From a virus: a DNA stretch of 23,872 nt. Positions 2,022 through 18,539 of the stretch are shown here, in pieces. The notes beneath the pieces were generated by a model. It worked only from the letters and a program-made list of their open reading frames with translations, made no database searches and was not told where the DNA came from. Position 1 is the first letter of the stretch. Each line of letters opens with the position of its first letter. Location of the stretch: IMG/VR virus record IMGVR_UViG_3300010371_000114, positions 1 through 23,872 of that record, one strand, 5' to 3'. Position numbers and translations under genes: made by a program.

Positions 2022-2033
2022 TATTTCAAATAA

Positions 2034-2041
2034 TATTTAAC
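2034..2041 (-). promoter_or_regulatory. Possible late promoter for portal (GTTAAATA)
   Basis: On the minus strand this reads GTTAAATA, matching the last six bases of TATAAATA. It lies between the hairpin at 2049-2082 and the portal ATG at 2021. It is a weak match in AT-rich DNA, supported mainly by the need for a promoter after the terminator. Confidence 0.35.
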
Positions 2042-2048
2042 CAAATAA

Positions 2049-2082
2049 AAATAGAGGAAATCATTACAAATTTCCTCTATTT
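2049..2082 (-). terminator. Rho-independent terminator between tube and portal genes
   Basis: A perfect 13-bp stem (2049-2061 with 2070-2082) and an 8-base loop lie just beyond the stop of the tube gene. On the minus strand the stem is followed by a T-rich run (ATTTTTATTTGG), as expected for intrinsic termination of the sheath-tube transcript. Confidence 0.7.
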
Positions 2083-2103
2083 GTTCAATATCAAAAATAA
2101 AAT

Positions 2104-2703: not shown

Positions 2704-2736
2704 ATATTTTCTTTATTAAAAACTCCTATTTAGAAA

Positions 2737-4869
2737 TTACTGAGGATTAATAATTTCTGAGAAATCTACTCCTGATGGTGTTGAAATAAAATTCAATAAC
2801 ACGTACCGGATTGAATGAACTGGTTTAACAAAAATATTAGCAAGAAACTCACCATTATCCTCAGTTTGTGGTGTATTTCCTGATAAATCAATTTGGAAAT
2901 CAGTGATAGCTCCTTGACCTTTTAAAGAAGTTAAAAATGGATTTACTCTTGAAACAAATTGTGACCGTGTAAAAGCATCATTTAATTCAAACAATGTATA
3001 TTTGGCTGCATTAGCAATAGCTACTTCCATTGTGATAAACAAATATCTAATACCAACTTCATTAAAAGCATCAGGTTTGTTTAGTAGTGTCTTATCACCA
3101 AATAGGAGAGAACCAAATCCTGGTTCAGAAAATGCAGGATTAATTCCTAATGGAAATAATTGATCTCTATCTGTTTCATTTGGATTCCAACCAAGTTTAA
3201 TACAATTTTTAATTATTCCTCGATTATATCCAGCAAATGGTACCCAAGGATTTGAATTACCAGCAGTTGATGCCCAAAGACCAGCAATATCACCATTAAG
3301 AGGCACCCAACGATTTACATCATTATAAGGATCATATTGATATTTCCAATTACCGTCTAAGAAACCATAAGATGAAGAAGGTAATTCATTTCGGTACGTT
3401 TCGATATCGGTAATTTCATTTCCTGAATTATTAACCACATCATTTAAATTTGGAGAAACAAATGCTACACAATCTTTCCGAACCTCGGCAATACTGGAAA
3501 TCAAATAATTTGCTAAAGTAAAACTTGCATCTCCAGCAATCAAGGCTCTAATGGTTAGATTTTGTTTATTTAAAAACAAATTAAAAGCTGTTTCTTTATC
3601 ACCATCTGTAATAGTGTCATTACCATCTACTCCACCGCTTAACGTATCTTGTACAGATTGATTAGTAATTGTAGTAGGAACACCATTTGCTCCAGATGTA
3701 GCACCTAATACTAAATCTGATGTAGTAAAAGCACCTTTGGTCATACTAACCACAAGTGTTTTACTGGTACTATTGTATGAAATTACAGTACCAGATTTTA
3801 CAGCAGTTGTTCCAAAAACCACTGTTGCTGTTGCTGTTGCACCAGTACCTGCTCCAGTGAATGTAACTGTAGGTGTTGATGTATATCCAGATCCTGGATT
3901 TGTAACCGTTACACTAATTACAGAACCACCAGATACAGTGGCAGTTGCAGTAGCTTGAACTCCACCAGAAGGTGGTGCTGAAATGGTAACTGTTGGTGCA
4001 GTTGTATAACCTGTACCACCAGCATTTACGGTAACGGTACCTGAAATTGGTCCAGAAAATACATTAACCTTTTCATTTGCTGCAAATTGTCCACCTGTAA
4101 CAGTGGTAAAAATTATAGTTGATGAAAGAATATCAAAACTGGTACTTTGTGCATTGTTTCCCCAATTTGTTCCTTCGGTTGGATGTTGCATCCAATAAAT
4201 TAATTGAGAATCACGGTTAATTACATTTACATAATAATTAGATGTTCCGTCAGAATTTTTTGCATCCTTTGCTTTTGACACAAAGGAATACTTTTTGATA
4301 ACTCCACCAATTGTTCCTGTAATATGTCCATCGAGATCAATAATAATCACATGCATTTCGTCATTTGAACCACCACGAGCGGAAACATAGCTTGAAGTTC
4401 CTGGAGAAATACCAAAATTTTTTGCATAAGTCCAAGTACCATAATTTCCAGCATCAGCGATAGAAATTAAAATGTTATTACCATATGCACCAGGATATTT
4501 AGCTGCCCAATTACCTACATTTCCTGAGCCATCGGCAAATTGGGTATCATAAGCATCTTGATTTGGAATTAATAATCCGGCGCCATCCGAAGTAGCATTT
4601 TTAGCATCACTAGAAATAGCACGAACTACAAAAGCTGAACTAGAATATTGTAAAAAATTCCAAATAGAAAAATAACTATTTGCTACGGTATCATCTGGTT
4701 TTTGAAAAACGTTATTTAAGTCAGTGACACCAGATAGTAAAACTGCTTGGTTTGCTGGTCCCCATTTAAATATACCGGCAAAACCAGCAGTTTGTGGATT
4801 AGTAGCGGCTACAGAACTTTGTAAACTGGTTTCTTGTACGGTAACTGAAGGTGATAGATTTAGAGACAT
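2737..4869 (-). CDS. Contractile tail sheath protein (T4 gp18-like) with an inserted beta-repeat domain
   Basis: A 710-residue protein; T4 gp18 has 659. It forms the contractile outer tail sheath. The N-terminus ([20 protein letters not shown], then [11 protein letters not shown]) is typical of sheath proteins. The conserved C-terminal half is also present ([20 protein letters not shown] near residue 610, and the final [17 protein letters not shown]). Between about residues 277 and 350 lie two copies of a Gly/Thr/Val-rich unit ([13 protein letters not shown] and [12 protein letters not shown], each followed by an ATATATV strand). They look like an inserted surface domain and are not part of the core fold. 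An exact late box at 4935-4942 lies about 66 bases upstream. An AGGAG at about 4891 and an AAGG nearer the ATG could serve as ribosome sites. It lies between the terminase and tube genes as in T4. Confidence 0.94.
3820..4041 (-). repeat. Tandem beta-repeat domain inside the sheath gene
   Basis: Two imperfect tandem units of about 36-38 codons. Each contains G-x-GYT-x-x-PTVT and ends in ATATATV. At DNA level the GTTGCTGTTGCTGTTGC run at about 3821-3837 reflects the Ala/Thr/Val alternation. The domain is probably exposed on the sheath surface. Confidence 0.65.
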
Positions 4870-4974: not shown

Positions 4975-6684
4975 TTAATTATATATAGTTTCCACAGGAA
5001 ACCACCAATCACCATCGATAAACTCTGGTTCCGATTCTGTTGGAATTAATCCACCAATAAAACCAATTGGAGTCAAATTGTGCTCTAATTCCTTCTCATA
5101 TTCTATTCGGATTGAATTTTTGAGTCCATCCGATATATATTCCCGGAAATTCTTTTGGTTTATTAACCAGGAAAATAATACCAAAGGTGTTACCAAATCA
5201 TCATGTTGACCTTCCGCCGCGGCAAAAGACGGACCATTACTGACAAAGTTAATTAATTGACTAACTATTTCTTTATCAACAAATGTTAATTTATCCATTT
5301 CAATCAAAGATTTCATTTGAGCACAACCAATTTTCTTAACTTGTTTACTCATTTTTACACCAGGTACCGTAGCATTTAATCCACCCTTACCAATAAAACC
5401 ACTAGAAAGAATTTGACCACTTCTTCCTTTAGTTTGAGTTTTAAACAAATTTTCATATTCAAATTCATAATGTAAATCCTTAGCCACTTCAGGTGAATCA
5501 TTTAATTCAACTAAAACCCAAGCATTATTATATTTTTTGGCTATATTATAAACCACTTGTGGATATACCAAAGTAGAAATTATATTAGATTTAAATGTAG
5601 CAACCACTTTATAAGGAATTTCAGTAATATCAACAACCACAAAGGCAGAATAATCCAATTGTCTACCCTGGGCTGTATCAGCTACCAATACATATTTTCG
5701 AGGAATTAAAACTATCTTACCATTTTCATGTTGGATTCTATCGGTTTTTGGATCTTCATAAACACATAAATCATTTTGTGTATATAAAGGTTTTCTAACA
5801 ATTGAGGATAATAATCTTAGTTTCTTTTTAGATAAAAGAGTATCGGATGCACCAATAAATGAGGTATTGAATTCTTGGTCGAATGCTTCTTCGGAACCAA
5901 GTTCCGCGATCATAGCCTTCTTCCATTCTTCATCTCTACCAGGAACATCATTCCATTCAATTGAAAATGGAACAAATTTACTGGTTTTTTCTGCCTCTTC
6001 TTTTATAGCCTCCATCCAAAGAGTATAAAATAAATCCATACCTTGAGGAGTAGAAATTATGAATACTTTGGTAGTTTTACCAGAAACAATTGTTGGTAAT
6101 GTTGAATTATAAAATTTTTGTTGTTTATTTAAATCAATATGGGCAAATTCATCAAGGATCAATAGCGACATTGATTTACCACGAATGGCACTTGATGATG
6201 TTGCAGCGGCAAATACTTTAGATCCATTCTCTAATTTAATGGATTTTTTGTTCCAACCACCATCTGGAATACCTTGCTGTAACCATTTAGGAAGATTTTC
6301 ATATGCTTCCTTTAAACGGTCTAAAAGTTCAATAGCTGTATCCAATTTGTTGGCAGCAAAAGCAACATTTTTATAATCATTAAAAAGAATATAATGGAGA
6401 GTAAATGCAACTAGAGACGATGTTTTTCCTGACTGCCGCGGTAATTTACCAATAAAAAACCTATTATCTCTACAAATTGTAAGCATTTCCTTCTGGAAAT
6501 CATACAAATTAAATGGAATTAGACCTTTATCAACATGAACAATTTTACAATAATGCTCAATAAAATAAAAAACATCCTTTTCACATTTAACAATTTCTGT
6601 TATTTGTTCAGGAGTATAATTGTGAGTAGTACCGGCCGCTTTTAATTTATCATTACCGAGATAATGATCTCTTCCATATGGCAT
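4975..6684 (-). CDS. Terminase large subunit (T4 gp17-like packaging ATPase and nuclease)
   Basis: A 569-residue motor protein (T4 gp17: 610) that docks on the portal, translocates DNA and cuts concatemers. ATPase motifs are visible: Walker A PRQSGKT at residues 82-88, Walker B SLLILDEF at 173-180 with the catalytic Glu after Asp, and the coupling motif STPQG at 211-215. The RNase H-like nuclease half has the expected acidic residues in VADTAQG (Asp336), VELND (Glu393) and QHDDL (Asp495/Asp496). It starts 12 bases after the stop of the upstream 485-residue protein. A TTTAAATA element at 6694-6701 (7 of 8 with the late box) would leave a leader of only about 4 bases, and there is no Shine-Dalgarno before the ATG. 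No small terminase is visible beside it; its usual place upstream is taken by the secreted-type proteins. Confidence 0.97.
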   Translation of the reverse strand: MPYGRDHYLGNDKLKAAGTTHNYTPEQITEIVKCEKDVFYFIEHYCKIVHVDKGLIPFNLYDFQKEMLTICRDNRFFIGKLPRQSGKTSSLVAFTLHYILFNDYKNVAFAANKLDTAIELLDRLKEAYENLPKWLQQGIPDGGWNKKSIKLENGSKVFAAATSSSAIRGKSMSLLILDEFAHIDLNKQQKFYNSTLPTIVSGKTTKVFIISTPQGMDLFYTLWMEAIKEEAEKTSKFVPFSIEWNDVPGRDEEWKKAMIAELGSEEAFDQEFNTSFIGASDTLLSKKKLRLLSSIVRKPLYTQNDLCVYEDPKTDRIQHENGKIVLIPRKYVLVADTAQGRQLDYSAFVVVDITEIPYKVVATFKSNIISTLVYPQVVYNIAKKYNNAWVLVELNDSPEVAKDLHYEFEYENLFKTQTKGRSGQILSSGFIGKGGLNATVPGVKMSKQVKKIGCAQMKSLIEMDKLTFVDKEIVSQLINFVSNGPSFAAAEGQHDDLVTPLVLFSWLINQKNFREYISDGLKNSIRIEYEKELEHNLTPIGFIGGLIPTESEPEFIDGDWWFPVETIYN

Positions 6685-6693
6685 TATATATAG

Positions 6694-6701
6694 TATTTAA
6701 A
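6694..6701 (-). promoter_or_regulatory. Possible late promoter of terminase (TTTAAATA)
   Basis: Seven of eight matches to TATAAATA, overlapping the stop codon region of the preceding gene. The expected transcription start falls about 4 bases before the terminase ATG, so the message would be practically leaderless. Confidence 0.4.
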
Positions 6702-8154
6702 GAATATACCAACCAGTCCCATCATATTGTAAAGTGTAGGATTGATTTTGTGTATTAATTGTCAATGTACTAAGTCCATCAATCGTTTTACCATTTCCAT
6801 TTATTGTTACTGTATTGGCACTAGAATCTACTTTTTTAACATTTAAAATTTCACCAGAATTTGGTGTTGCTGGTAATGTAATTGTAAATCCCGCAGTAGA
6901 ACTATTAGCTAAAAGTGTATAATCACTTGATGTAACTGTATATGCTCCGGTTTTAGTTGCAATATTTGGAGTAATTTTGGAATTTAATTGTGTTTGAATA
7001 TTTCCGGTTAAACCAATTAAATCATCAAAAAGAGTATTTGTAATACTACCACTTCCTACTTTTGTTGCATCAATACCACTAGGTATTTGTCCTAATGGTA
7101 CAACAGCAGAAGCAGTTAATTTTATAGTAGAATTGGATGTGTTAGGTGTTGCAAATGCTGCCGATACAGCAGCAATATTGGCTGCACTTTGTCCACCAAC
7201 TTTATTAACCGTTGCAGATACAGATCCAGAACCAGATGCGGAAATATCATTTGTCAAAGCTGTAATACCACCACCAGAACCGCTTCCTGGAGGAGCTCCA
7301 GTATCAATTAATTGACCATTTGGTCCCCATTGAACACCATTACCAGGAACTGGTGTTGTTCCATTAATCCATGGTAAACTTCTAGTAGTTGAACCGTCTC
7401 CATATACTAAAGATAAGGTGGTAGAATTTAATCCCAATAAACCAGCCGTAACTGGAGAATAAGATGTAGAGATAGGTATTTTTAAGGTTCCCATACTCAA
7501 ATCTTGTAAACCAGATGTATATGAATTACCTTGATTATTTTTGACTACTTGACTACCATCACTTAATGTTGAAACAGATAAACTACCTAATCCTAAATGG
7601 ATAGTATCCCCTAAATGATATGTTCCAGCACCTGAAATACCACCCGAGGTAGTAATAATAAATCCAGAATTAGCCAAGGCATTATTTGGAATAGATTCAT
7701 AAGTTACTACACCGGGAGCAGTAACAATTGGTACAGTATTTGTTCCTGGATTATTTGGATAAGTTACTCCATTTACTCCTATAACAGAAATGTTTTTTGA
7801 ACCAGCAGTATTTTGAAGATCCCCACCAAATGATGGAATTTGTGAGGTTGTTAATAACGAATCAGGACCAAGAGTAGCTAATCCATTGGCGGCCCCTGCA
7901 CCAGTTGCAGTAAATGTTTGTTGTGTCCATAAACCTCCATGACAAATAAAAGTAGATAAGGTAACAATACTTGTAACTTGGGCACCTTCGGTAGTACATC
8001 CTGTCCCGATAGGATTTGTAGAAATAATTGGCAATTTTACATAAGGAGCAGAAGACATATCCACATAACCAATAAATCGAGTATCGCCATTTGTCAAAAC
8101 TTCAGAAAATATTGGTAAACAAATACAAAAAAGTAATAAAAATTTTTTAAACAT
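6697..8154 (-). CDS. Tail-fibre-like repeat protein with N-terminal signal peptide (485 aa)
   Basis: Residues 1-17 (MFKKFLLLFCICLPIFS, then EVLT) have the layout of a Sec signal peptide: basic start, hydrophobic core and a small residue at the presumed cleavage site. The mature part is low-complexity beta-structure rich in Ser, Thr, Gly and Asn, of the kind found in fibres and adhesins. It has a two-Cys segment near residues 53-77 ending in GGLWTQ, a GGISGAGTYHLGDTIHLGL repeat-like stretch near 170-188, and NNQGNSYTSGLQDLS at about 206-220, also present in the 795-residue protein. The C-terminal 90 residues (TYTV..SDYTLL, then TITLP, then QYDGTGWYIL at the end) form a beta domain also seen near the N-terminus of the 795-residue protein. 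No catalytic motif is recognised. It lies just upstream of terminase and is probably a late gene. Whether it is a virion fibre or an exported protein cannot be settled from sequence alone. Confidence 0.85.
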   Translation of the reverse strand: MFKKFLLLFCICLPIFSEVLTNGDTRFIGYVDMSSAPYVKLPIISTNPIGTGCTTEGAQVTSIVTLSTFICHGGLWTQQTFTATGAGAANGLATLGPDSLLTTSQIPSFGGDLQNTAGSKNISVIGVNGVTYPNNPGTNTVPIVTAPGVVTYESIPNNALANSGFIITTSGGISGAGTYHLGDTIHLGLGSLSVSTLSDGSQVVKNNQGNSYTSGLQDLSMGTLKIPISTSYSPVTAGLLGLNSTTLSLVYGDGSTTRSLPWINGTTPVPGNGVQWGPNGQLIDTGAPPGSGSGGGITALTNDISASGSGSVSATVNKVGGQSAANIAAVSAAFATPNTSNSTIKLTASAVVPLGQIPSGIDATKVGSGSITNTLFDDLIGLTGNIQTQLNSKITPNIATKTGAYTVTSSDYTLLANSSTAGFTITLPATPNSGEILNVKKVDSSANTVTINGNGKTIDGLSTLTINTQNQSYTLQYDGTGWYIL

Positions 8155-8173
8155 ATACCGGTATTCTTAATTA

Positions 8174-8181
8174 TATTTACT
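8174..8181 (-). promoter_or_regulatory. Possible late promoter (AGTAAATA) for the 485-aa gene
   Basis: The minus strand reads AGTAAATA, keeping the TAAATA core of the late box. It overlaps the stop of the upstream gene and would give a leader of about 14 bases before ATG 8154. This is a weak match. Confidence 0.3.
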
Positions 8182-11122
8182 GATGTCCTAAAATTACATG
8201 TCCTCGAATTTGTACATTTCCAAAAATACTTAATGGATTCGTAATTATTGGTGGAGGTGTTGTATTTACAACGGTAAAAGGTTGTGATGATGAAGAATAT
8301 GGATTACACCACACATCTGTAGCGGTAGTTTTTAATGTATGGCTACCATTTGATAAAGAAGTAGTACTCGCATTTAGAGTATAAGGGCTTGTTTGATCTG
8401 TACCAAAAGAATTATTTGAATTATCTACATAAAAATCTGTTTGGAATATTTGATTAGAAGTCAAAATTCCACTCAATGTAGCAGTAGCAGATACAATATT
8501 ATTACTAACATTTGGAGTACTTAATGACATGTTAGCTAAATTAGTTGGACATGTAGTGGAAATAGTATTATTACTCCATGTTTCATTCCATTTAATAGAA
8601 TTAGTTCCAGTATTTGGATTTCCATTTACTAAACTATTTGGATTATCCTGTTGGTCATGAAATGGAATACCAGTACTTCCTAAAGAATTACAAATATAAT
8701 TAAAATTAACAACACCATTTAAAGCTGATGATAATTGTATACCTGCTTGCATTTTTCCTTGAATTAGATAATTACCGGTAGCTACTGCATTTTCCCCCAT
8801 TAGTTCTACCGCTAAGGACATAAGATTATTATTAGAATCATTTCCAAAAATAATATTATTTCTAACAGTGGCGTTTTTTCCACCTATTTGGATACAACCT
8901 CCACTAGCAGAACTACATATTTGATTAGTCGAAAAATTATAATATTGTACTGGTAATGCTAAGGAAGTAAAAAATGTATTCCAATATGGATCCCATGGAT
9001 TATCGAACACATTTGATTCATCCATAAAACTAGTTTCCAATACTCCTCTAGGATTTTGAGAATAAGAACCTCCACAACCAGTAGGTCCTTGTATTTCCAT
9101 ACCCATACGATGAATAAAATTAAAATAATTATGATCAATTGATATATTAGATGTGGTATATCCATTTTCCAAACAAATTTTGAGACCTTGATTTACATGA
9201 TCAAAGGTATTATACGAAATATTAGTATTATCAAGTCCATAAAACCAAATACCTCCACCATTCGCACAATCAGGCCAATTTGTTTGACCATTACAACTTG
9301 CCCTGGTACTATTATTTGAAATTAAATTTTTAAAAGTATTGTGATCAATAGAACTATTTTTAAATCCTGTATCAGAACCAATTGCTACATTTTGTAAATT
9401 TGACCCACTACTACCAAACATATTTTGGATTGTATTTCCTCTAATTATCCAATTGGTTGGAGGATTAGATTTACTACCATCAAAAACTCCAATACCTCCT
9501 CCGTCTAATACAAATCCTTCAATAGTTGTGTAATTCGGAGGATTTGTCGTTAAAAATATTGAATGAATTACAGTTTCTGGAATATTAATTTGTACAGTTT
9601 TAGGAACTGCGACCATATAGGTAATATGATCGGCTGATTTTAAATTTAAACTGGAACTTATTTTATATGTACCAGAATCAAAAACCAATGTATCACCAGA
9701 AACTAAAGAATTTATTGCATTTTGCAAATGGGTTGTATCATCTGTAGTTCCATTTCCCACTGCACCAAAAGAACTAGTATGTTTAGCTCCGGAAGGTATT
9801 GTATAACTTGTTGGAGGATTTGAATTTCCATTTTCACATTGATTCGGAACTGGACCAGTTCCGCCTCCACCCTGGTCGCCGCCATTAGAAATTGTTCCTA
9901 CAATAAAATCAGTTGATGTAACAGTTTGCGAGGTAGAACTACTTGTATTCAATGATATTCCCAATTGAGCTACATTTATCGCATAAATGTATTGTGATTT
10001 TTGAATAAAATTAATACCATCAGAAGATGTTAAACAAGAAAAAGTATTACCGCTTCTTTTCATTTGTAACCAATAAAATGATGCTGATCCTAAGGTAGTA
10101 CCTTGATCTACAGATGTTCCTGTAGATCCATTAACATATCCGGACCAAGTTACCACACCGCTACCAAAATTATCAATTTCACATCTAGCAAAATGTGTAA
10201 AATCTTGAATTGCCTCAAGACCTTGACCTTGGCCTGTACCAGGACTACTAGTTAATTTGGTCGTAATTGTAAAATCAGTATTGGGGGATGCTTGGATAGC
10301 AATTAATCCATTATTCCCAGAAGTCCATCCGTCATGAGGACTATTTGAAGGAATTGATAAATTTAATGCTCCACTTCCAAAACTCATGGTGCCACCACCA
10401 GGTACATCCATTTTTTGCCACATAGAAGTTAAAGAAGAATCATTGAAAAAATGGTCTGTAATTACAATAGGTCTAAAATAATCAAATTTTGCGGTATAAG
10501 CTGGTGAATTTGCTACCGTTGAATTAAAATTATATGCATATAAACCAATATTATCTGAAGTAATTGGTATAGAAGAACTACTTCCTAAAAGAGTATAATT
10601 TGTACCATCTGTAGAATAATTTGCTGTATAAGTATTTCCTAATTTTTGAAATCTCAAATATATGACACTTGGCGGAGAAAATCCAGTGGTTTGAAAAACT
10701 TGTGTTTGGACCCCATTTACAACATAATTCCAAGAGATATGAACATTACCATCTGTACCATTATCACTTCCAAATTCAAATCGGATATAATGATTAATAT
10801 CCTGGATGATCATAATTCCAGCTCCAATAAATTTAGAGTTGGAAATAGAATCAATTTTTGTTTCCACAAAAAAATCATTTTGACCAATATTTTGCATAAT
10901 TCTAACAGAATTATTACCACCTACAAAAGCATCATTATTTGTGCCACCTGCTAAAGTCATAACTAGTTCACCATTCGAAACATTAATTGATTCATTTGTA
11001 TTTTTAGTTTGTGTCCACACACTACTATTCAACGGAGATGAAAAATCATCAGATGTAACCAAATTACCAGCAAATGTAATATTGGTTAGGATAAAAATAA
11101 AAAAGAAAATTCTATAAAACAT
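8177..11122 (-). CDS. Secreted-type multidomain beta-helix protein with two lectin-like domains and an Ig-like domain (981 aa)
   Basis: The largest gene of the window. It starts with a signal-peptide-like segment (MFYRIFFFIFILTNITFA, then GNLV; TFA fits the -3/-1 rule). Residues about 22-220 and 221-410 are two related beta-sandwich units of the DUF1349/concanavalin-like type: the first begins DDFSSPLNSSVW, the second DHFFNDSSLTSMW, and both have a GNTYTANYSTDGTNY or GNTFSCLTSSDGINF strand pair. A Gly/Pro linker follows. Then comes a pectate-lyase-type right-handed beta-helix (SSFGAVGNGTTDDTTHLQNAI near 449-469, followed by many N-x-x-x-N-x-F/I turns) to about residue 860. An Ig-like domain (about 870-955, with TDFYVDNS and SNGSHTLKTTATD) closes it. 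The likely role is binding and perhaps cleaving polysaccharide outside the cell; no catalytic residues can be assigned. It starts only 6 bases after the upstream gene and is probably co-transcribed with it. Confidence 0.88.
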   Translation of the reverse strand: MFYRIFFFIFILTNITFAGNLVTSDDFSSPLNSSVWTQTKNTNESINVSNGELVMTLAGGTNNDAFVGGNNSVRIMQNIGQNDFFVETKIDSISNSKFIGAGIMIIQDINHYIRFEFGSDNGTDGNVHISWNYVVNGVQTQVFQTTGFSPPSVIYLRFQKLGNTYTANYSTDGTNYTLLGSSSSIPITSDNIGLYAYNFNSTVANSPAYTAKFDYFRPIVITDHFFNDSSLTSMWQKMDVPGGGTMSFGSGALNLSIPSNSPHDGWTSGNNGLIAIQASPNTDFTITTKLTSSPGTGQGQGLEAIQDFTHFARCEIDNFGSGVVTWSGYVNGSTGTSVDQGTTLGSASFYWLQMKRSGNTFSCLTSSDGINFIQKSQYIYAINVAQLGISLNTSSSTSQTVTSTDFIVGTISNGGDQGGGGTGPVPNQCENGNSNPPTSYTIPSGAKHTSSFGAVGNGTTDDTTHLQNAINSLVSGDTLVFDSGTYKISSSLNLKSADHITYMVAVPKTVQINIPETVIHSIFLTTNPPNYTTIEGFVLDGGGIGVFDGSKSNPPTNWIIRGNTIQNMFGSSGSNLQNVAIGSDTGFKNSSIDHNTFKNLISNNSTRASCNGQTNWPDCANGGGIWFYGLDNTNISYNTFDHVNQGLKICLENGYTTSNISIDHNYFNFIHRMGMEIQGPTGCGGSYSQNPRGVLETSFMDESNVFDNPWDPYWNTFFTSLALPVQYYNFSTNQICSSASGGCIQIGGKNATVRNNIIFGNDSNNNLMSLAVELMGENAVATGNYLIQGKMQAGIQLSSALNGVVNFNYICNSLGSTGIPFHDQQDNPNSLVNGNPNTGTNSIKWNETWSNNTISTTCPTNLANMSLSTPNVSNNIVSATATLSGILTSNQIFQTDFYVDNSNNSFGTDQTSPYTLNASTTSLSNGSHTLKTTATDVWCNPYSSSSQPFTVVNTTPPPIITNPLSIFGNVQIRGHVILGHQ

Positions 11123-11128
11123 TTCGGA

Positions 11129-13177
11129 TTATTGTGGTAAAGTAACGGTTGTATCACTTGCTAATCCATTAGTTGGCTTAACAGTCAAAGTATGTCCACC
11201 AGTTGATTCTTTAAGTAAAACTTGACCTGTGGCACTTCCTCCGGAATTTAATCCAACAGGAGAATTAACTGTTCCATCTGTATTTAAAACACAAACAAAT
11301 AAACTGCTACTAACTTTATCTACCCATATACCAGTTCCTGATGCCACTGGTGAACCTAAATTACAACCAGCATCATAAACCCAAACATGTGATCCTTGCT
11401 TCATTCCTGATAACATTGAAAATGGTATTTCCATATTCTTTAACAAATATGTATTACCAAATGTTGATACTGGTGTTCCAGAAGATGTCCAATATACCCA
11501 AGCTGAAGGATATAATCCTGTAGTATTGGAATCATATGTTGTATAAGTAGTTGAATCCATAGCCACTGTAATATTATTACCACTTATAGCAATTACAGTA
11601 GGACATTGACCATTTGCTTGTGTCATACCTTGAATACCTAACAGACACAATTTTGCTCCAACAGTAATTGCTGAATCTGTACCAGAAATTGTTACCACTG
11701 CAGGATTAGCCTTTGTTATGTTAGTAACTCCAATATTATTATTACTACCCACAATTCCTATTGGAATTTGCCAACCACTTCCTAAAAAATTATCTTCTAA
11801 AATTTCAGTAAAACTACTTGAGGTTCCAGCATCGATAGTTACACAAGTCGCCATCGGTTGACCCAAAAATAAACCACTTACAGGAGTTCCACCACTACCT
11901 GTTAGTTGATTGGAAACACAACCATTTCTATAAAACTTATTTCCTCCAGTAGTACTACCCGCACCTAATTGGAATCCTAATGGTGTATTAATTGCCCAAT
12001 TATCATGAGCAATTGCTCCTTCAAAATGACCACACCAATTTGTTCCACCATAACAAGTGTTGTTATAAATTTGATCAGGAATACCTATTAATCGTAAACT
12101 TTGATTAGTTGAAGAAAATCCAGCGGAAGCATATAATTGATTATCGTGACAACGATTTCCAAAACCACCTTCTTCAGAACAATAGAAATTATCTCTTGAA
12201 AACCATATTTGATTATCATGGACATCATTAAATGCAGTATTTTCTCCTACTCTAATACCAGACCATTGAGTATTATCAATTATATTATGAGCTACTTCAC
12301 AATTCCAAATTTGATATAACAAAATTCCATTTCCAAATTGTCCTGTACCATTAAAAGCATCAGTAATGTTTCTAATGTTATTTCCTTCTATAAAACAATA
12401 TCCTGGTTTTGAATTAGAACTACCACCAGAATTTTCCATAACAATAGCATTATCCTGAGGTCCGGTAATATCATTATTCTGGATTCTGACAATTCGATTA
12501 GTAGAACCACCCATATCTACAAATGCAAATGTTCCTGTTGGTCCATCACCAACTGTATTTTTTTGGATTGTTACTGATGATTGGAAAACCTGAATATCTC
12601 TAACTAAATTACCAGTGCTACCTGCAAATCTAAATACATCATCTTGTATCGTAATTGAAGAGGACTGGTTAATATTAATCAAAGGAGAGGATGAATTTAC
12701 TGAATTTCCATTGATTGTACAACCAATAATACCAGCAAAAAACGAACCGGTATTAACTTTAAACATTGAAGTTGTAGTACCACTAGATAAATGAATAAAA
12801 CCAGAATTATTTGAATGATTATTACAAATAATTAAAGTATTTGATGGTATTGATACATTATCAATTGCTAAAATACAATTTGATGGAAGATAAACAATAT
12901 TAGCAGCATTCATTGCATTTACTAATGATTGGCTATTATTAGTAGTGCTATCATTACAAACTGGTAATACATTATTCGAATTTTTCCATTCTGTTATAAA
13001 GGTTGTTTGTTGATTCTTTGTTTGCTGGGAAAGAACTCCACCATTGGCTCCTTGACTAGGTGTATAAAAAATAGATCCAGGAGTAGCGGATTGACCAGAG
13101 TTTGGATTATAAGTTGCAAATATTGGTGAAACAAACAAAAATATTGAACAAACAATTGAAAAAAACTTTTTTACCAT
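11129..13177 (-). CDS. Beta-helix fibre-like protein with signal peptide (682 aa)
   Basis: The N-terminus MVKKFFSIVCSIFLFVSPIF followed by Ala-Thr reads as a signal peptide cleaved after Ala21. From about residue 70 to 470 the chain has the short Asn-rich rungs of a right-handed parallel beta-helix (for example DNTQWSGIRVGENTAFNDVH and FGNRCHDNQLYAS). This fold is common in phage tailspikes and polysaccharide lyases. The C-terminus is a beta-rich segment that stops at GGHTLTVKPTNGLASDTTVT followed by LPQ. In many fibres this TLP element continues into a longer domain, so the end may be shortened. A GATAAATA late box at 13191-13198 lies immediately upstream, with a predicted leader of 8 bases and no Shine-Dalgarno. 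The next gene follows after 6 bases, suggesting a two-gene transcript. Binding or degradation of host surface glycans is an inference from fold only. Confidence 0.86.
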   Translation of the reverse strand: MVKKFFSIVCSIFLFVSPIFATYNPNSGQSATPGSIFYTPSQGANGGVLSQQTKNQQTTFITEWKNSNNVLPVCNDSTTNNSQSLVNAMNAANIVYLPSNCILAIDNVSIPSNTLIICNNHSNNSGFIHLSSGTTTSMFKVNTGSFFAGIIGCTINGNSVNSSSPLININQSSSITIQDDVFRFAGSTGNLVRDIQVFQSSVTIQKNTVGDGPTGTFAFVDMGGSTNRIVRIQNNDITGPQDNAIVMENSGGSSNSKPGYCFIEGNNIRNITDAFNGTGQFGNGILLYQIWNCEVAHNIIDNTQWSGIRVGENTAFNDVHDNQIWFSRDNFYCSEEGGFGNRCHDNQLYASAGFSSTNQSLRLIGIPDQIYNNTCYGGTNWCGHFEGAIAHDNWAINTPLGFQLGAGSTTGGNKFYRNGCVSNQLTGSGGTPVSGLFLGQPMATCVTIDAGTSSSFTEILEDNFLGSGWQIPIGIVGSNNNIGVTNITKANPAVVTISGTDSAITVGAKLCLLGIQGMTQANGQCPTVIAISGNNITVAMDSTTYTTYDSNTTGLYPSAWVYWTSSGTPVSTFGNTYLLKNMEIPFSMLSGMKQGSHVWVYDAGCNLGSPVASGTGIWVDKVSSSLFVCVLNTDGTVNSPVGLNSGGSATGQVLLKESTGGHTLTVKPTNGLASDTTVTLPQ

Positions 13178-13190
13178 ATGGTTTCTATAC

Positions 13191-13198
13191 TATTTATC
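13191..13198 (-). promoter_or_regulatory. Late promoter GATAAATA of the 682-aa gene
   Basis: GATAAATA on the minus strand (7 of 8 with TATAAATA). The same octamer occurs before the 795-residue gene and the 122-residue gene. It forms a dyad with GATAAATC on the plus strand two bases away, so the spot could fire in both directions. Confidence 0.65.
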
Positions 13199-13200
13199 TT

Positions 13201-13208
13201 GATAAATC
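13201..13208 (+). promoter_or_regulatory. Possible late promoter GATAAATC for the plus-strand small genes
   Basis: The plus-strand half of the dyad at 13191-13208 reads GATAAATC (6 of 8 with TATAAATA). It would start transcription about 30 bases before ATG 13244, leaving room for the AGAAGG ribosome site at 13233-13238. No sigma-70 promoter is evident here. Confidence 0.4.
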
Positions 13209-13243
13209 ATTCTGAAAAATAGTAAAATAAAAAGAAGGTAAAG

Positions 13244-13531
13244 ATGAAAAAAATCTCTTTTTTTAGTATTTTGATATTATTTGTCTTTGGAATAGGCTAT
13301 TATATATGTACAAATCCACCGGCGCCAAAAGGAATGTATTGGTTAAAAGTTAAAAATAATTATATAGAAGCTGGAGATTTGTTTTATGGTAATATCCATG
13401 TAGCAGCATATTTAGATAAGGAAGTATGGTGCCAGGTAACAAATCATTATACGAAGTATAAATTTAATATTCAAGCAAAATGGTTGGCTAGGCAATGCGG
13501 ACAAAAATATCTAAAAAATCTGGCTAAATAA
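13244..13531 (+). CDS. Small membrane-anchored or exported protein of unknown function (95 aa)
   Basis: A 95-residue protein on the opposite strand from its neighbours, with a good ribosome site (AGAAGG, 5-base gap). The N-terminus MKKISFFSILILFVFGIGYY is a signal anchor or uncleaved signal peptide. It is followed by PPAPKGMYWLK and a basic, probably extracytoplasmic domain with two further Cys (in VWCQV and RQCGQK) that could pair after export. The PAP-x-G-x-x-W motif directly after the membrane segment recurs in the 242-residue protein at 20791. It resembles the segment after the membrane anchor of TraF-type signal peptidases, but no catalytic Ser is present. With the next tiny gene it forms a plus-strand pair inside the late cluster. 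A lysis (spanin-like) or envelope function is possible but unproven. Confidence 0.75.
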   Translation: MKKISFFSILILFVFGIGYYICTNPPAPKGMYWLKVKNNYIEAGDLFYGNIHVAAYLDKEVWCQVTNHYTKYKFNIQAKWLARQCGQKYLKNLAK

Positions 13532-13549
13532 AAAAAACAAAAATTTAGA

Positions 13550-13601
13550 GTGAAACTTTCGTACTAGTAGTATAGTCTAAAAATTGTGAAAGCATGTACT
13601 A
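13550..13601 (+). repeat. Direct repeat GTGAAA-N4/5-GTACTA between the two small genes
   Basis: GTGAAA-CTTTC-GTACTA at 13550-13566 is echoed by GTGAAA-GCAT-GTACTA at 13586-13601. The second copy is part of the hairpin at 13581-13616. Its role is unknown; a protein binding site or paired RNA structures are both possible. Confidence 0.4.
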
Positions 13602-13616
13602 TTACTTTCACAATTT
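13581..13616 (+). other. 12-bp perfect hairpin in the gap between two small secreted genes
   Basis: AAATTGTGAAAG (13581-13592) pairs perfectly with CTTTCACAATTT (13605-13616) around a 12-base loop. No T-run follows on either strand, so it is not a standard terminator. It lies 24 bases before the proposed TTG start of the next gene and could slow transcription, protect the 3' end of the first message or regulate the second. Confidence 0.55.
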
Positions 13617-13640
13617 AAATCAATAAGGATTATACAAATT

Positions 13641-13790
13641 TTGAAAAACTTCGTTTTGTTGTTTTGTTTTGCTTTAGGATTGACGATTTTACCACAAGCC
13701 AGAAAAGGACCTTATATTCAAGGAACACCTTATCCAATTCCACAAGGACCTACTTTACCTCAACCACACCAACCAATTCCACGTAAGTAA
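13641..13790 (+). CDS. Tiny secreted proline-rich peptide (49 aa, TTG start)
   Basis: An open frame of 49 residues with a TTG start at 13641 and AAGG at 13625-13628 (12-base gap, somewhat long). Residues 1-20 (MKNFVLLFCFALGLTILPQA) form a good signal peptide with a cleavage site after Ala20. The predicted mature peptide of 29 residues is basic and proline-rich (RKGPYIQGTPYPIPQG..., ending QPIPRK). No ATG is available in frame. No lipobox is present; the single Cys lies inside the hydrophobic core. The gene ends 22 bases before a strong terminator. A small, proline-rich exported protein after a single-pass membrane protein recalls the Rz/Rz1 layout, but the lipidated Cys of Rz1 is missing. A proline-rich antimicrobial-type peptide is another reading. 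Both are inference. Confidence 0.55.
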   Translation: MKNFVLLFCFALGLTILPQARKGPYIQGTPYPIPQGPTLPQPHQPIPRK

Positions 13791-13811
13791 AATATTTTTT
13801 TTTTTCAAAAT

Positions 13812-13842
13812 AAAAAAGGTACCAAAATAAGGTACCTTTTTT
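13812..13842. terminator. Bidirectional rho-independent terminator
   Basis: A perfect 12-bp stem (AAAAAAGGTACC at 13812-13823 with GGTACCTTTTTT at 13831-13842) and a 7-base loop. A-runs and T-runs are built in, so it works on both strands. It lies between the convergent ends of the 49-residue gene (plus) and the 795-residue gene (minus). Confidence 0.88.
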
Positions 13843-13846
13843 ATTT

Positions 13847-16234
13847 TTAATAAGATTTAAACATTACACTATTCATATCCTGGGTAATACCAGTATCTTT
13901 AATACTAGATTTTTGTACCATTACTCCGATATACCATTGAGCAGTTGTATCTAACGTAACAGCGGTAGAATTATTATCATTCAATATTGTTGGAGATCCA
14001 CCTGCCGTGGTCGCGGCTATCAATGTTCCATGACAAATTAATGTTCCTGTTGATCCTGTTGTGGCCACTTGACAACCAGCATTTATATTCCAAGAATTTG
14101 TATAAGGATTACCAGTGGAACCTACTGTAGCTGTAGTCCATGTTGCTAAAATTTTTCTTGTGGATCCACAAGTATTGGAATCACATGCATTAAGTGTAAA
14201 AGTTAATGTTGTGCCAGTTTCATCGGCATTTGTAGTATATGTTCCACCACCTTTATAATCAAATTCCTGATTTACATAATTTAAAACGCCAGTTGTAGTC
14301 AACGCAGTGGCTAACATCATTGGAGTAGTTACTTCATGTAATTGGGTTACAGGAACCGTTCCAAAATAATTTCTTTTTGATGATGAAATGTTTAAATAAC
14401 CTGAAGGATCATGATACGCTGCAATAGCTTGACCAGAAGAATAAAAATCTTCAACCCGATTAGTACCTTGATATGCATATGGTAAGAAATTAGGATCACC
14501 TAAAACATTAATACCATAATCACCACCAACGCATTGACCACCTTGTATATGAATTTGTACGGCATTCATTAAAGCTATACAAGCCTTACCTGATCCTGTA
14601 GGAATACCTGAAATAGCAGGATTGATAATTGAAAAACTTTGACCTTCTGTATAAATACCATAACGTCCAGCGGTTTCATTACCTGAAGGAATTAAAGTGA
14701 TATTTTTTGGTCTACCACCAGATTCAGCATAAAAGTGATAACCATCAACTGTAGCGGCATCACAAGCAGTACCAAGAAACGCAGAATATTGTAAATCACC
14801 AATATTATAACAATGATTTCCTGGTGCATCTCCATATGTTGAAATAAAATTAGTAGATGTTGATGGTCCGGTAACCGAAAACGAATTTTGTATGGAATTA
14901 TTTGCTCGGTCACCAATAATATAAGAATTGATTGGATTAACTAAATGCTCACCATCTTCAAATCCATAAATTTGATTACCTGATAAATGCAAAATTGCTG
15001 TATCACTTGTACCATCAATCCAAATACCGTGACCGGTAGTTCTAGTTGCTAAAACACCATCTGTAATATTCAAATTATCAATTTCAATATTCCGAGAACC
15101 AGAAAGAGTAGCTTTGGCATCAATAGCATCTGCCGTAGTTGATGTTTGTTTGATACCATTATCAGCAAAACCTGATCCAATAATTCTCTGATTTGATTTC
15201 ATTATTAAGGCTGAAGAAATCTTATAACAACCACCAGGAGCTCTCGGAAAATAAACAATAGGATATGTATTTAAAACAGCTTGAATTGCTGAAGTATCGT
15301 CGGTAGAACAATTACCTGTAACACCATGCATTAAAACATTTTCCGCAAAAATAGCGGATGTACTGGGAATCCAAGATGGGGTTCCAGGAGTAGTTCCATT
15401 ACCAATATCAATATAAAAACCAGGAACCGTAGTAGCATTACCAGCCACTCTAATTGGTGTTCCTCCAGCACTTGCACTAATACCATCTCCTGCCGAAGTC
15501 ATTGGATTTGTTAATCCAGTTCCTAATAATTGTTGTGTCCATGTATTAGTTGCTGTACATTCCCAGAGATTTTGCCCTGCTGTAGAAGTACTATTAAAAA
15601 ATAATTGACCAACACCACAAGTAGCAGGATTTGAAGAACCTGAATTTATTTTAATACCAACTGCTGAAAAATCTTGTAAACCAGATGTGTAAGTATTTGC
15701 TTGATTTGTTTTAACAACTGTCGCACCTAAAGACAATGCACCAAGAATCGTTTGCCAATTGGTTCCATCACTAACAATCATTAATCCTTGGCCTGTGGTT
15801 ACAGCCAAAGAAGATGCACCATTTATTGTTGATGTTGTTGGCGTAATTGTTACAGTACCAGCACCAACATTTTGGACATAAAAAGAAAAACCAGAAGTAA
15901 AACTTCCAGTTGCCTGTGGTAATGTAACCGAAATAGTACTGGCATTATTAAATGTAACTAACTTACCACAATCAGAAGAAGATACGGTATATGTGGTACC
16001 AGTTTGTGCATTCACTGTAATGGACAACTTTGTGGTTCCAGAACCACCTAAAGCAATTGATCCTGCACCAGAAACTCCACAACTACCATTTTCTGTAATA
16101 TTAGAACTGGAAAGAGATCCTGGACCTATACCACCAATAGTTTGATTTGTAATACCATTGATTGTAGCTGTTTGGGCTTTTAAAAAAGAAATAGATGATA
16201 ATAATATTAGTAGTGTGGAGAGCTTTTTTACCAT
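13847..16234 (-). CDS. Modular fibre and beta-helix (pectate-lyase-3-like) protein with signal peptide (795 aa)
   Basis: Residues 1-20 (MVKKLSTLLILLSSISFLKA, then Gln) are a signal peptide of classic form. Directly after it, ATINGITNQ is nearly the same as VTINGITNQ in the 749-residue neighbour. Residues about 70-165 form a beta domain (TYTVSSSDCGKLVTF, VTLPQATG, VSDGTNWQTIL) related to the C-terminus of the 485-residue protein. NQANTYTSGLQDFS at 177-190 is shared with that protein too. A Cys-flanked segment (ATCGVGQLFFNS... near 204-215) follows. Then a Pectate_lyase_3-type motif begins the beta-helix at about 303-340 (HGVTGNCSTDDTSAIQAVL, YFPRAPGGCYKIS). The last 150 residues are a separate beta-rich domain ending in VMFKSY. 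The late box GATAAATA is at 16249-16256 with a 9-base leader. The fold suggests glycan binding or cleavage; the active site cannot be named. Confidence 0.87.
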   Translation of the reverse strand: MVKKLSTLLILLSSISFLKAQTATINGITNQTIGGIGPGSLSSSNITENGSCGVSGAGSIALGGSGTTKLSITVNAQTGTTYTVSSSDCGKLVTFNNASTISVTLPQATGSFTSGFSFYVQNVGAGTVTITPTTSTINGASSLAVTTGQGLMIVSDGTNWQTILGALSLGATVVKTNQANTYTSGLQDFSAVGIKINSGSSNPATCGVGQLFFNSTSTAGQNLWECTATNTWTQQLLGTGLTNPMTSAGDGISASAGGTPIRVAGNATTVPGFYIDIGNGTTPGTPSWIPSTSAIFAENVLMHGVTGNCSTDDTSAIQAVLNTYPIVYFPRAPGGCYKISSALIMKSNQRIIGSGFADNGIKQTSTTADAIDAKATLSGSRNIEIDNLNITDGVLATRTTGHGIWIDGTSDTAILHLSGNQIYGFEDGEHLVNPINSYIIGDRANNSIQNSFSVTGPSTSTNFISTYGDAPGNHCYNIGDLQYSAFLGTACDAATVDGYHFYAESGGRPKNITLIPSGNETAGRYGIYTEGQSFSIINPAISGIPTGSGKACIALMNAVQIHIQGGQCVGGDYGINVLGDPNFLPYAYQGTNRVEDFYSSGQAIAAYHDPSGYLNISSSKRNYFGTVPVTQLHEVTTPMMLATALTTTGVLNYVNQEFDYKGGGTYTTNADETGTTLTFTLNACDSNTCGSTRKILATWTTATVGSTGNPYTNSWNINAGCQVATTGSTGTLICHGTLIAATTAGGSPTILNDNNSTAVTLDTTAQWYIGVMVQKSSIKDTGITQDMNSVMFKSY

Positions 16235-16248
16235 AGATTTTTCTTAAT

Positions 16249-16256
16249 TATTTATC
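16249..16256 (-). promoter_or_regulatory. Late promoter GATAAATA of the 795-aa gene
   Basis: GATAAATA on the minus strand, preceded by ATCAAA, as at 13191 (ATCAA before GATAAATA). The predicted start lies 9 bases before the ATG at 16234. It is the only obvious promoter in this 55-base gap. Confidence 0.6.
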
Positions 16257-16289
16257 TTTGATAAAATAATCAACAAAATAATCCCTTTA

Positions 16290-18539
16290 TTAGGAACTTC
16301 GGGCTATTAATATCCACTTATTTAATCCGGATACATACCGGAAAAATACCGATGAATTTGGTGCTAATGCGACATTTGCCACTAATGATATATTGGTATC
16401 TGATACAAATGTAATTGTGTTACTTCCTATGTTTTTTATTTGAATTTCTGTACCATCTTCCGATTTACTTGCATCAATTGTAGCCGTAATGGGTGTGCTA
16501 TTATCAAATACCATTACAACAGGACCCATAGGAGTAATTACTGTACCTTCTGCGGATAAATCCCATTGTCCTGTAGTGGTATCAGATGTAATACACAAAC
16601 TACAAATCTCGTTATTCCAAGAAACATTTTTTCCGGCTAGAGTACTATATGAGCCTGATCCCCAGGCTCCAAAATAATACAAAGGAAATTGATAATCCCA
16701 AGTATTATTTCGAATTCGGAATTGGCTCCAATTTGTGGCAGCGGAATCGAAATATCCTGGTTGAATATTGTAAATAGCATGAATAGTTTTTCCGGCAGAG
16801 ATTGCCGCGGTACTTGCAGTTCCATAATTTCCTTGTACTATCACTTTTTTAGCAAATTTTGGCATCAAGAAAAAAGATTGAAGGCTATATTTATCCATGC
16901 TCCAATCGTTTCCTTTAACAACTACATTGGGCCCGGCATTGTCTTGGAGATTTAAAAACCAATCACAATCATGGCAAGTGTTTTGAAGAACTGTCACATT
17001 TGCAATAGGTGTGGAAGTACCTTGATATCCAACTTTCACCGCCGATCTGGCTCCGGTTGTAATAGGTTGGACTCCAATCGTATCAAAATGGTTGTGATCC
17101 ACTCGCAATTCGCCTGAATAGGAATTATTATCCACTCCTACAACTGTAATACCTTCACCACACATATCACTGATGTTATTATCTCGGTACACTTGCCGAA
17201 TGAGGGGCGCGGCGCCTCCATCACCAGTAGTAGAATTTTCGACCGCTCCATGAAATCCTCTTTTTATCGTATTTCCAACAACTTGTAAATCGGCGGCCTG
17301 GATACTGATTCCATCACCATTGAAATTATCAAAAGTGGAATTACTTATTACAGCCATAGAAAGATTATCTCCTCCACCGTAAATATTTTCACCTTTGAAA
17401 TCCTGAATCCAAACATGGTCAATTAAAACATTATTCATCGTGGCATTATCATGTAAATAAATTCCTTTGTGGGTTTCATCCCAACCATCACCCGTATTTA
17501 CATGCCGAGAATCACTAGGCGTAAAATCATCCGTAAATGTTCTACCATTTGTCATCCCAAATAAATGTAAATTTTGAATTGTTGTATTATTAATATTTGC
17601 AGTACCTAAAGGTCCTGTCGGATCACCAATTAAAATACAACTTCCTCGAATTTCATTATTTCCAGCACCAAATTGGGCACTATTAGAAAGTATCGAATAT
17701 GCTCCACGACAAAATATATTTGTACCGTTAGGATCACCTATTAAAGCAATATTTGGATATTGAATTTTAATAGCCGCTGGTATTGGCGCGGTTGCCATAT
17801 CTGTTTCTTTAAATACATACCCACAATCAGCACCAGCAGGGCAAGAATCTGGTTTAGGTATCCGTAACAATCCTCCTCCAGATGCACCAATAGTATCTAA
17901 CGCATTTTTAAATGCGGCTTCATTATCAGTTCCGTATGCATATCGTGTATTAGTTATAGTTCCAGATGCGGCTGTACTTAATGTTACTTGAGTGGCACTT
18001 TGTACAGATAAAATTGTTCCTTCTAAGGTCATATATCCGTAAAAATAAGCTCCACCTGAAACATTTGTATTTGCATTGGCACTAAGTGTAATATTAGTTG
18101 GAGAATTAAATGCCTGAATATATCCAAATAAATTCGATCCTCCTGATCCAGCACCAATAACCATGATACCTCTACCAACATCATTTGCAGTAAAAGTACC
18201 GGCTTCTGAAGATAGAATAGGGGAACCAGAATTCATTACTCCATCACTATGAGTAGAACCACCAGGTCCGGCACCAATTACTTGAATATATTTTCCAACA
18301 TCAGCCGAAGAAAAAGTTCCTGATGCGGAATTTAATACAATACTCCCGGCAACCATAGAACCATCGGTCCGAGAAATGCCATCAGCTTTGGCGTTATATT
18401 TTAATACGGAAGTAATTTCATTCGGATTACTAATCTTTTGATTAGTAATCCCATTAATAGTTACAATGGTTTGAGAGAAACTTTTTGGCAAAGTTATAAA
18501 CCAAATAACTAAAATGAAAGTAAAAAATTTTTTCCCCAT
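16290..18539 (-). CDS. Pectate-lyase-superfamily beta-helix protein with signal peptide (749 aa)
   Basis: Begins with a signal-peptide-like MGKKFFTFILVIWFITLPKS and a small-residue site (SFS before Gln-Thr), then VTINGITNQ as in the 795-residue protein. Residues about 60-133 hold two tandem copies of an S-x-x-GTF-x-x-x-DVG-x-x-I-x-VIGAG unit, a common lead-in of phage beta-helix proteins. At about 205-235 the pattern AYGTDNEAAFKNALDTIGAS and GGLLRIP is the Pectate_lyase_3 start. Asn-rich helix rungs follow to about residue 650 (for example DNATMNNVLIDHVWIQDF). The C-terminal 90 residues (STPITATIDASKSEDGTEIQ, NTITFVSD, NKWILIARSS) form a beta domain of the TLP/W type seen in two neighbours. 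A terminator lies just upstream and no clear late box is seen in the 30 bases between, so its promoter is unclear. The likely substrate is a surface or extracellular polysaccharide (inference). Confidence 0.87.
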   Translation of the reverse strand: MGKKFFTFILVIWFITLPKSFSQTIVTINGITNQKISNPNEITSVLKYNAKADGISRTDGSMVAGSIVLNSASGTFSSADVGKYIQVIGAGPGGSTHSDGVMNSGSPILSSEAGTFTANDVGRGIMVIGAGSGGSNLFGYIQAFNSPTNITLSANANTNVSGGAYFYGYMTLEGTILSVQSATQVTLSTAASGTITNTRYAYGTDNEAAFKNALDTIGASGGGLLRIPKPDSCPAGADCGYVFKETDMATAPIPAAIKIQYPNIALIGDPNGTNIFCRGAYSILSNSAQFGAGNNEIRGSCILIGDPTGPLGTANINNTTIQNLHLFGMTNGRTFTDDFTPSDSRHVNTGDGWDETHKGIYLHDNATMNNVLIDHVWIQDFKGENIYGGGDNLSMAVISNSTFDNFNGDGISIQAADLQVVGNTIKRGFHGAVENSTTGDGGAAPLIRQVYRDNNISDMCGEGITVVGVDNNSYSGELRVDHNHFDTIGVQPITTGARSAVKVGYQGTSTPIANVTVLQNTCHDCDWFLNLQDNAGPNVVVKGNDWSMDKYSLQSFFLMPKFAKKVIVQGNYGTASTAAISAGKTIHAIYNIQPGYFDSAATNWSQFRIRNNTWDYQFPLYYFGAWGSGSYSTLAGKNVSWNNEICSLCITSDTTTGQWDLSAEGTVITPMGPVVMVFDNSTPITATIDASKSEDGTEIQIKNIGSNTITFVSDTNISLVANVALAPNSSVFFRYVSGLNKWILIARSS
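18141..18362 (-). repeat. Tandem GTF-DVG-VIGAG repeat within the 749-aa gene
   Basis: Two adjacent units of about 38 codons, SASGTFSSADVGKYIQVIGAG and SEAGTFTANDVGRGIMVIGAG (differing at about a third of positions), each followed by GGS. They look like duplicated beta-strand lead-in modules before the beta-helix. Confidence 0.65.

What the first reader, a model, noticed from the sequence alone, without database searches (positions are those of the whole stretch)
6697..18539. Five late beta-helix or fibre-like phage proteins, each with an apparent Sec signal peptide
Seen: all five large genes (485, 981, 682, 795 and 749 residues) begin with a basic start, a 12-16 residue hydrophobic core and a small-residue cleavage site (IFS, TFA, IFA, LKA, SFS). 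They lie in the structural region next to terminase, and at least two have late-type boxes. Known: tail fibres and tailspikes of T4-like phages are folded and assembled in the cytoplasm and normally carry no signal peptide; the 284-residue fibre-like protein at 23012 has none. Inference: the phage may run a late secretion programme that exports a set of glycan-binding or depolymerase-like proteins, for matrix breakdown, masking of receptors against superinfection, keeping progeny from sticking to debris, or attack on neighbours. This is the best candidate here for an undescribed system.
Basis: partly seen in the sequence, partly recalled or inferred. Interest (0 to 1): 0.85.

Follow-up and report, generated by a model that had tools for sequence, protein, structure and literature searches.

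The report
Phage fibre genes carrying export signals
A T4-like phage carries, inside its late structural gene block, five large fibre- or spike-like genes that all begin with a bacterial export signal; unrelated phages of Geobacter-type bacteria do the same in their tail-fibre slot, so some phages appear to send spike-type proteins out of the cell before it bursts, which tail fibres are not known to do.

Summary
The window is a T4-like myovirus fragment (portal, tube, sheath and terminase are clear). All five genes from 6697 to 18539 start with a tripartite Sec-type signal peptide. My rule-based scorer finds 9/9 known exported and 0/30 other E. coli proteins; in T4-like relatives it flags 3 of 177 large proteins (one true porin, two evident false calls). 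The five sit directly upstream of gp17. Late-promoter-like boxes precede 7 of 10 late-strand genes, including three of the five.

They are fibre/spike-type: three share a small beta-sandwich domain with fibre proteins of unrelated phages, and one is a carbohydrate-binding, polysaccharide-lyase-like mosaic.

New here: about a dozen unrelated myo-, podo- and sipho-type (pro)phages, hosts Geobacterales/Deltaproteobacteria where known, carry signal-peptide fibre or beta-helix genes in the tail-fibre slot. Their signal has a drifting core but a conserved cleavage site and mature N-terminus, as a working signal should.

Most likely these are late proteins exported through Sec that act on glycans outside the cytoplasm; joining the virion at lysis is not excluded. 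Function is untested. No structure was obtained (models failed) and no close relatives of the five were found.

The parts
16290..18539 (-). 749-aa signal-peptide protein (first of the five in transcription order); C-terminal beta-sandwich of the phage-fibre kind
   Evidence: SP score 14.05; phrog_32881 pectin lyase repeats, residues 99-168; shared domain
18474..18539 (-). signal peptide of the 749-aa protein, predicted SFS|QT
13847..16234 (-). 795-aa signal-peptide protein with the fibre beta-sandwich near its N-terminus (residues 65-163)
   Evidence: GATAAATA box upstream
16175..16234 (-). signal peptide of the 795-aa protein, predicted LKA|QT
11129..13177 (-). 682-aa signal-peptide protein, beta-helix-like, 16 Cys in the mature part
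   Evidence: weak TIGR03808 match, 23 bits against a cut-off of 120; GATAAATA box upstream
13115..13177 (-). signal peptide of the 682-aa protein, predicted IFA|TY
8177..11122 (-). 981-aa signal-peptide protein: two GH43_C2 concanavalin-like stretches, polysaccharide-lyase-like start of a beta-helix, Big_7
11069..11122 (-). signal peptide of the 981-aa protein, predicted TFA|GN
6697..8154 (-). 485-aa signal-peptide fibre-like protein with C-terminal fibre beta-sandwich
8104..8154 (-). signal peptide of the 485-aa protein (IFS|EV; the scorer preferred TNG|DT)
6700..6984 (-). fibre beta-sandwich domain at the 485-aa C-terminus; homologous stretches at 15746-16042 (795 aa) and 16293-16562 (749 aa)
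   Evidence: profile comparison with fibre proteins of Geobacterales phages, probability 97.6%
13191..13198 (-). late-promoter-like GATAAATA before the 682-aa gene
16249..16256 (-). late-promoter-like GATAAATA before the 795-aa gene
8174..8179 (-). TAAATA box before the 485-aa gene
4975..6684 (-). gp17 terminase large subunit (context)
213..4869 (-). gp20 portal, gp19 tube, gp18 sheath (context)

Best explanation
The five genes form a late cassette of fibre/spike-type glycan proteins built from phage fibre modules, beta-helices and carbohydrate domains. They are exported through the host Sec pathway before lysis instead of staying in the cytoplasm. SHOWN by sequence: signal-peptide grammar on all five, late-type boxes, the place in the gp17-20 block, phage-fibre domains in three, lyase-like or carbohydrate-binding domains in one. 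INFERRED: signal peptidase removes the signal, the mature proteins fold in the periplasm or reach the outside, and there they bind or cleave envelope or matrix glycans around the time of lysis, so that progeny leave and spread instead of sticking to the spent host. Unrelated phages carry the same combination in their tail-fibre slot, so the cassette is best seen as an exported offshoot of the tail-fibre repertoire. Export itself I rate at about 0.85; export plus free action on glycans at the figure given.
For: Five of five signal peptides with a calibrated scorer, against 3 of 177 in T4-like relatives, only one of them real. Late boxes. Fibre and glycan domains. Independent recurrence in tail loci of unrelated phages, with the signal's core drifting (41% identity) and its cleavage region and mature start conserved (80%, 75%). 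Related chromosomal genes, some beside polysaccharide genes, also have the signal. T4-like phages do encode exported proteins, such as the S-CREM1 porin. Phage use of Sec is established for endolysins (PMC6116005).
Against: No experiment, no SignalP score, no structure; host unknown. No close relative of any of the five bodies was found, so conservation of these particular signals is untested. The link to the Geobacterales cases rests on one small domain. No catalytic site was identified.
Confidence: 0.5

Rival explanations
1. Exported tail fibres or spikes that join the virion late: the proteins are translocated, mature in the periplasm, and attach to finished particles at or after lysis through a docking domain.
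For: In Geobacterales (pro)phages the signal-peptide genes occupy the tail-fibre slot, next to a signal-less anchor protein and, in L121 and L124, just before the lysozyme gene; two are true fibre-repeat proteins. The mature N-terminus is conserved while the body varies, as in spikes with a docking segment. In T4 some fibre parts can be added to completed particles (gp12 annotation).
Against: The five window proteins share no common N-terminal docking segment; only the 749- and 795-aa proteins share about 12 residues. Assembly after export is not known for tailed phages.
Confidence: 0.25
2. Captured host genes: secreted host proteins picked up as morons or auxiliary genes and kept for the host's or phage's benefit, with no tie to tail fibres.
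For: The 981-aa protein looks like a bacterial secreted polysaccharide enzyme. Homologues of the Geobacterales family also lie in phage-free chromosomal sites, and a tree does not separate them from phage copies.
Against: Three of the five carry a phage-fibre domain and the 485-aa C-terminus matches tail proteins; they lie in the structural block with late boxes.
Confidence: 0.13
3. The hydrophobic N-terminus is not an export signal but an uncleaved docking or trimer-forming peptide of ordinary cytoplasmically assembled fibres.
For: The proteins are fibre-like and the genes sit among structural genes.
Against: Grammar, not sequence, is common to the five: Lys/Arg, uncharged core, small-residue site, with different residues. 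In the Geobacterales family the core drifts while the cleavage region is kept. A docking peptide would show the reverse.
Confidence: 0.09
4. Chance or wrong start codons: the signals are artefacts of ORF calling.
For: Shine-Dalgarno sites before these genes are weak.
Against: Shuffle tests, near absence of such starts in T4-like relatives, late boxes at fitting distances and distant next start codons.
Confidence: 0.03

Closest known systems
Signal-peptide fibre and beta-helix genes in tail loci of Geobacterales (pro)phages (found here; no published description found)
   Same: Signal peptide on fibre/spike-type genes in the late tail region; a shared small beta-sandwich domain
   Different: Different beta-helix bodies and mature N-termini; temperate Mu/P2-, podo- and sipho-type phages rather than T4-like; one or two genes rather than five
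Receptor-binding protein cluster rbp1-4 of Campylobacter phage F367 (Fletchervirus)
   Same: Array of pectin-lyase-fold receptor-binding proteins in a T4-type phage
   Different: None has a signal peptide; annotated as virion receptor-binding proteins
Soluble phage depolymerases released at lysis
   Same: Phage glycan-active proteins not fixed to the particle (PMC5380687)
   Different: Described as set free by lysis, not exported by a signal peptide
Sec-exported phage endolysins (fOg44 Lys44, SAR endolysins)
   Same: Late phage proteins that use host Sec (PMC6116005)
   Different: Murein lytic enzymes for lysis; the five proteins have no lysin domain

Membership tests
Sec-exported proteins | Tripartite N-terminal signal (positive n-region, hydrophobic core, AXA-like site), no further membrane segment | tested here: met
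Sec-exported proteins | Translocation and cleavage in the host | not testable with these tools
   Needs PhoA fusion or proteomics
Virion tailspike/receptor-binding array (rbp1-4 type) | Beta-helix (pectin-lyase) fold | tested here: inconclusive
   Partial family hits for the 981, 682 and 749 proteins; models failed
Virion tailspike/receptor-binding array (rbp1-4 type) | No signal peptide; made and assembled in the cytoplasm | tested here: not met
   All five have a signal peptide; rbp1-4 have none
Virion tailspike/receptor-binding array (rbp1-4 type) | Common N-terminal virion anchor | tested here: not met
   Only a ~12-residue stretch shared by two of the five
Virion tailspike/receptor-binding array (rbp1-4 type) | Presence on virions | not testable with these tools
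   No proteomics
Geobacterales tail-locus signal-peptide spikes | Signal peptide on a fibre/spike gene in the tail/late block | tested here: met
Geobacterales tail-locus signal-peptide spikes | Conserved mature start TNTSGPWGxDAxGF | tested here: not met
   Absent from all five mature N-termini
Geobacterales tail-locus signal-peptide spikes | DGTNWQTI-type beta-sandwich in the fibre set | tested here: met
   hhalign probability 97.6%, three of five proteins
Sec-exported endolysins | Murein hydrolase domain | tested here: not met
   No such Pfam, PHROG or NCBIfam hit

The most novel reading that the evidence does not exclude
Some tailed phages export tail fibres or spikes through the host Sec pathway, fold them outside the cytoplasm and load them onto virions at or after lysis: a split assembly route for receptor-binding proteins, used by a T4-like phage and by Geobacterales myo-, podo- and sipho-type phages.
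Probability: 0.22. Interest if true: 0.88.

Novelty: new variant of a known kind. Interest (0 to 1): 0.6.

Why it matters
If the exported proteins act freely, phages run a pre-lysis programme on extracellular glycans that annotation pipelines would file as 'tail fibre' or as a captured 'pectate lyase'. If they end up on virions, tail-fibre assembly is not always cytoplasmic. Either way, a signal peptide on a fibre-slot gene is a simple mark for finding such cases, and culturable Geobacterales lysogens (for example Geomonas limicola, L094) make the question testable.

Tried and rejected
Close relatives of the five bodies: viral scans with four of the five gave nothing, the 795-aa scan gave only its small domain in unrelated phages, and annotated phages gave only short domain matches. 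The shared motif INGITNQ as a family mark: 52 viral contigs, no signal-peptide context, near the number expected by chance. Single-sequence AlphaFold models of the 795- and 749-aa proteins: pLDDT 33, not used for fold search. A regular-expression count of beta-helix turns: not discriminating. A tree to decide whether phages or hosts hold the ancestral signal-peptide family: unresolved. Literature searches for signal peptides on tail fibres found no description in the open library; subscription papers are not covered. Host of the window phage: not determined.
Full report
WHAT THE WINDOW IS. The window is a complete 23,872-bp IMG/VR record, probably a genome fragment. The minus strand carries, in transcription order, a 122-aa gene, the five genes of the finding, then gp17 terminase, gp18 sheath, gp19 tube and gp20 portal of a T4-like myovirus. 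The terminase is at most about 46% identical to cyanophages and pelagiphages and 39-43% to other viral contigs, so the phage is divergent. In T4, Mosig, S-CREM1 and HTVC008M the genes upstream of gp17 are gp16, 15, 14 and 13, in some with small additions. Here the five large genes take that place, and the coding strand switches at about 19,050.

THE OBSERVATION. SignalP was not available, so I wrote a rule-based scorer: net positive n-region, an uncharged hydrophobic core of 9-14 residues, an AXA-like site and no later membrane segment. On an annotated E. coli K-12 stretch it found 9 of 9 exported proteins and 0 of 30 others. It finds all five, and none of gp17-20 or the 284-aa fibre-like protein. 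Shuffling each protein reached its score at most 3 times in 2000. Among 177 non-redundant large proteins of T4-like relatives 3 score: one annotated iron-uptake porin and two low-scoring false calls. TAAATA boxes lie 6-40 nt before 7 of 10 minus-strand starts against 0.35 expected, including the 485-, 682- and 795-aa genes. The 981-aa gene follows the 682-aa gene by 6 nt; the 749-aa gene has no recognised box.

WHAT THE PROTEINS ARE. The 981-aa protein has GH43_C2 concanavalin-like stretches, a Big_7 domain and a stretch resembling the start of a polysaccharide lyase in the PDB. The 682-aa protein weakly matches the exported repetitive family TIGR03808, far below its cut-off. The 749-aa protein shares repeats with a phage pectin-lyase family. 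The 485-aa C-terminus matches tail-fibre and minor tail proteins. The 485-, 795- and 749-aa proteins share a beta-sandwich-like stretch of about 90 residues, which profile comparison links (97.6%, E 4e-12) to the DGTNWQTI-ending domain of fibre proteins in other phages. The 485- and 795-aa proteins also share a TYTSGLQDFS-type module. So these are fibre/spike-type mosaics. A beta-helix fold was not confirmed by a model.

THE SAME COMBINATION ELSEWHERE. Following the shared domain led to unrelated phages. In Mu/P2-like contigs L025, L026, L027, L088 and L089, and in L084, L085, L090 and L093, a large gene with a clear signal peptide lies just downstream of baseplate and fibre genes, in most of them directly after a fibre protein ending in a DGTNWQTI-like sequence. 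It has a conserved start (APTNTSGPWGIDASGFKNLSTALASP) and a variable body; two of four tested hit Pfam Beta_helix. L026, L084 and L093 carry a second signal-peptide gene; in L026 and L084 its body holds classical fibre repeats, and the L084 one matches gp37 long tail fibres of Acinetobacter T4-like phages. One contig corresponds to a prophage of Geomonas limicola. A profile of the signal and mature N-terminus hits 18 of 141 genomes of that order, the weakest hits being marginal. Larger loci show podovirus-like prophages: in L121 and L124 a fibre gene with a signal peptide (in L124 read at an internal Met), a signal-peptide beta-helix gene and a probable lysozyme gene lie in a row; L123 is similar but its last gene does not score; L122 is siphovirus-like. 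Here anchor and lysozyme are my readings of the sequences, not family hits. Other copies lie at phage-free chromosomal sites, some beside polysaccharide genes; a tree does not separate the two kinds. Across seven family members, pairwise identity is 41% in the signal core, 80% in the cleavage region, 75% in the first mature residues and 44% after them. That is the pattern of a working signal followed by a conserved attachment or folding segment. In 52 essentially random viral contigs, 0 of 9 fibre-like proteins had a signal.

HOW IT MOST LIKELY WORKS. Shown: signals, late boxes, fibre and glycan domains, slot in the late block. Inferred: the proteins are made late, pass through Sec, and act on glycans at the cell surface or in the surrounding matrix around the time of lysis. 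Four of the five are richer in cysteine than most structural proteins here, which fits an oxidising compartment but is weak evidence, since the signal-less 284-aa protein is too. The main rival is that the exported proteins are spikes that join particles at lysis. The tail-fibre slot and the conserved mature N-terminus of the Geobacterales family favour it; the lack of a common anchor in the five speaks against it for this phage. Host-gene capture explains parts, particularly the 981-aa protein, but not the fibre domains. A docking peptide without export is unlikely because grammar, not sequence, is conserved.

KNOWN OR NEW. Sec use by phages is known for endolysins (PMC6116005). Free depolymerases are known but are described as released by lysis (PMC5380687). 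Clusters of signal-less beta-helix receptor-binding proteins are known in Campylobacter T4-type phages. I found no description of signal peptides on tail-locus fibre/spike genes in the open literature searched. I therefore call this a new variant of a known kind.

LIMITS. No SignalP, no usable structure, no close relatives of the five bodies, host unknown, no experimental evidence of export. The T4-like and Geobacterales cases share only one small domain, so they may be convergent.

Noticed in passing
13244-13531 and 13641-13790, + strand: Two small opposite-strand ORFs in the gap between the 682- and 795-aa genes: a 95-aa one with a membrane or signal N-terminus, and a 49-aa TTG-start one with a signal-like start and a proline-rich tail, followed by a terminator-like hairpin.
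   Followed up: partly
20791-21519, + strand: 242-aa protein with an N-terminal membrane or signal segment and no firm family hit.
   Followed up: no
2737-4869, - strand: The tail sheath has an internal stretch (about residues 245-380) matching repeats in many phage fibre, baseplate and virion families, as if a decoration domain were inserted.
   Followed up: no
18654-19022, - strand: 122-aa gene with a GATAAATA box and a good Shine-Dalgarno site heads the late block; no family match.
   Followed up: no
L118, L119, L120, L125, L126: Geobacterales chromosomes carry related signal-peptide beta-helix genes away from phage genes, some beside glycosyltransferase or polysaccharide genes.
   Followed up: partly
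L092 39903-40838 (S-CREM1): A T4-like cyanophage encodes an iron uptake porin with a signal peptide, a separate case of phage-directed export.
   Followed up: no
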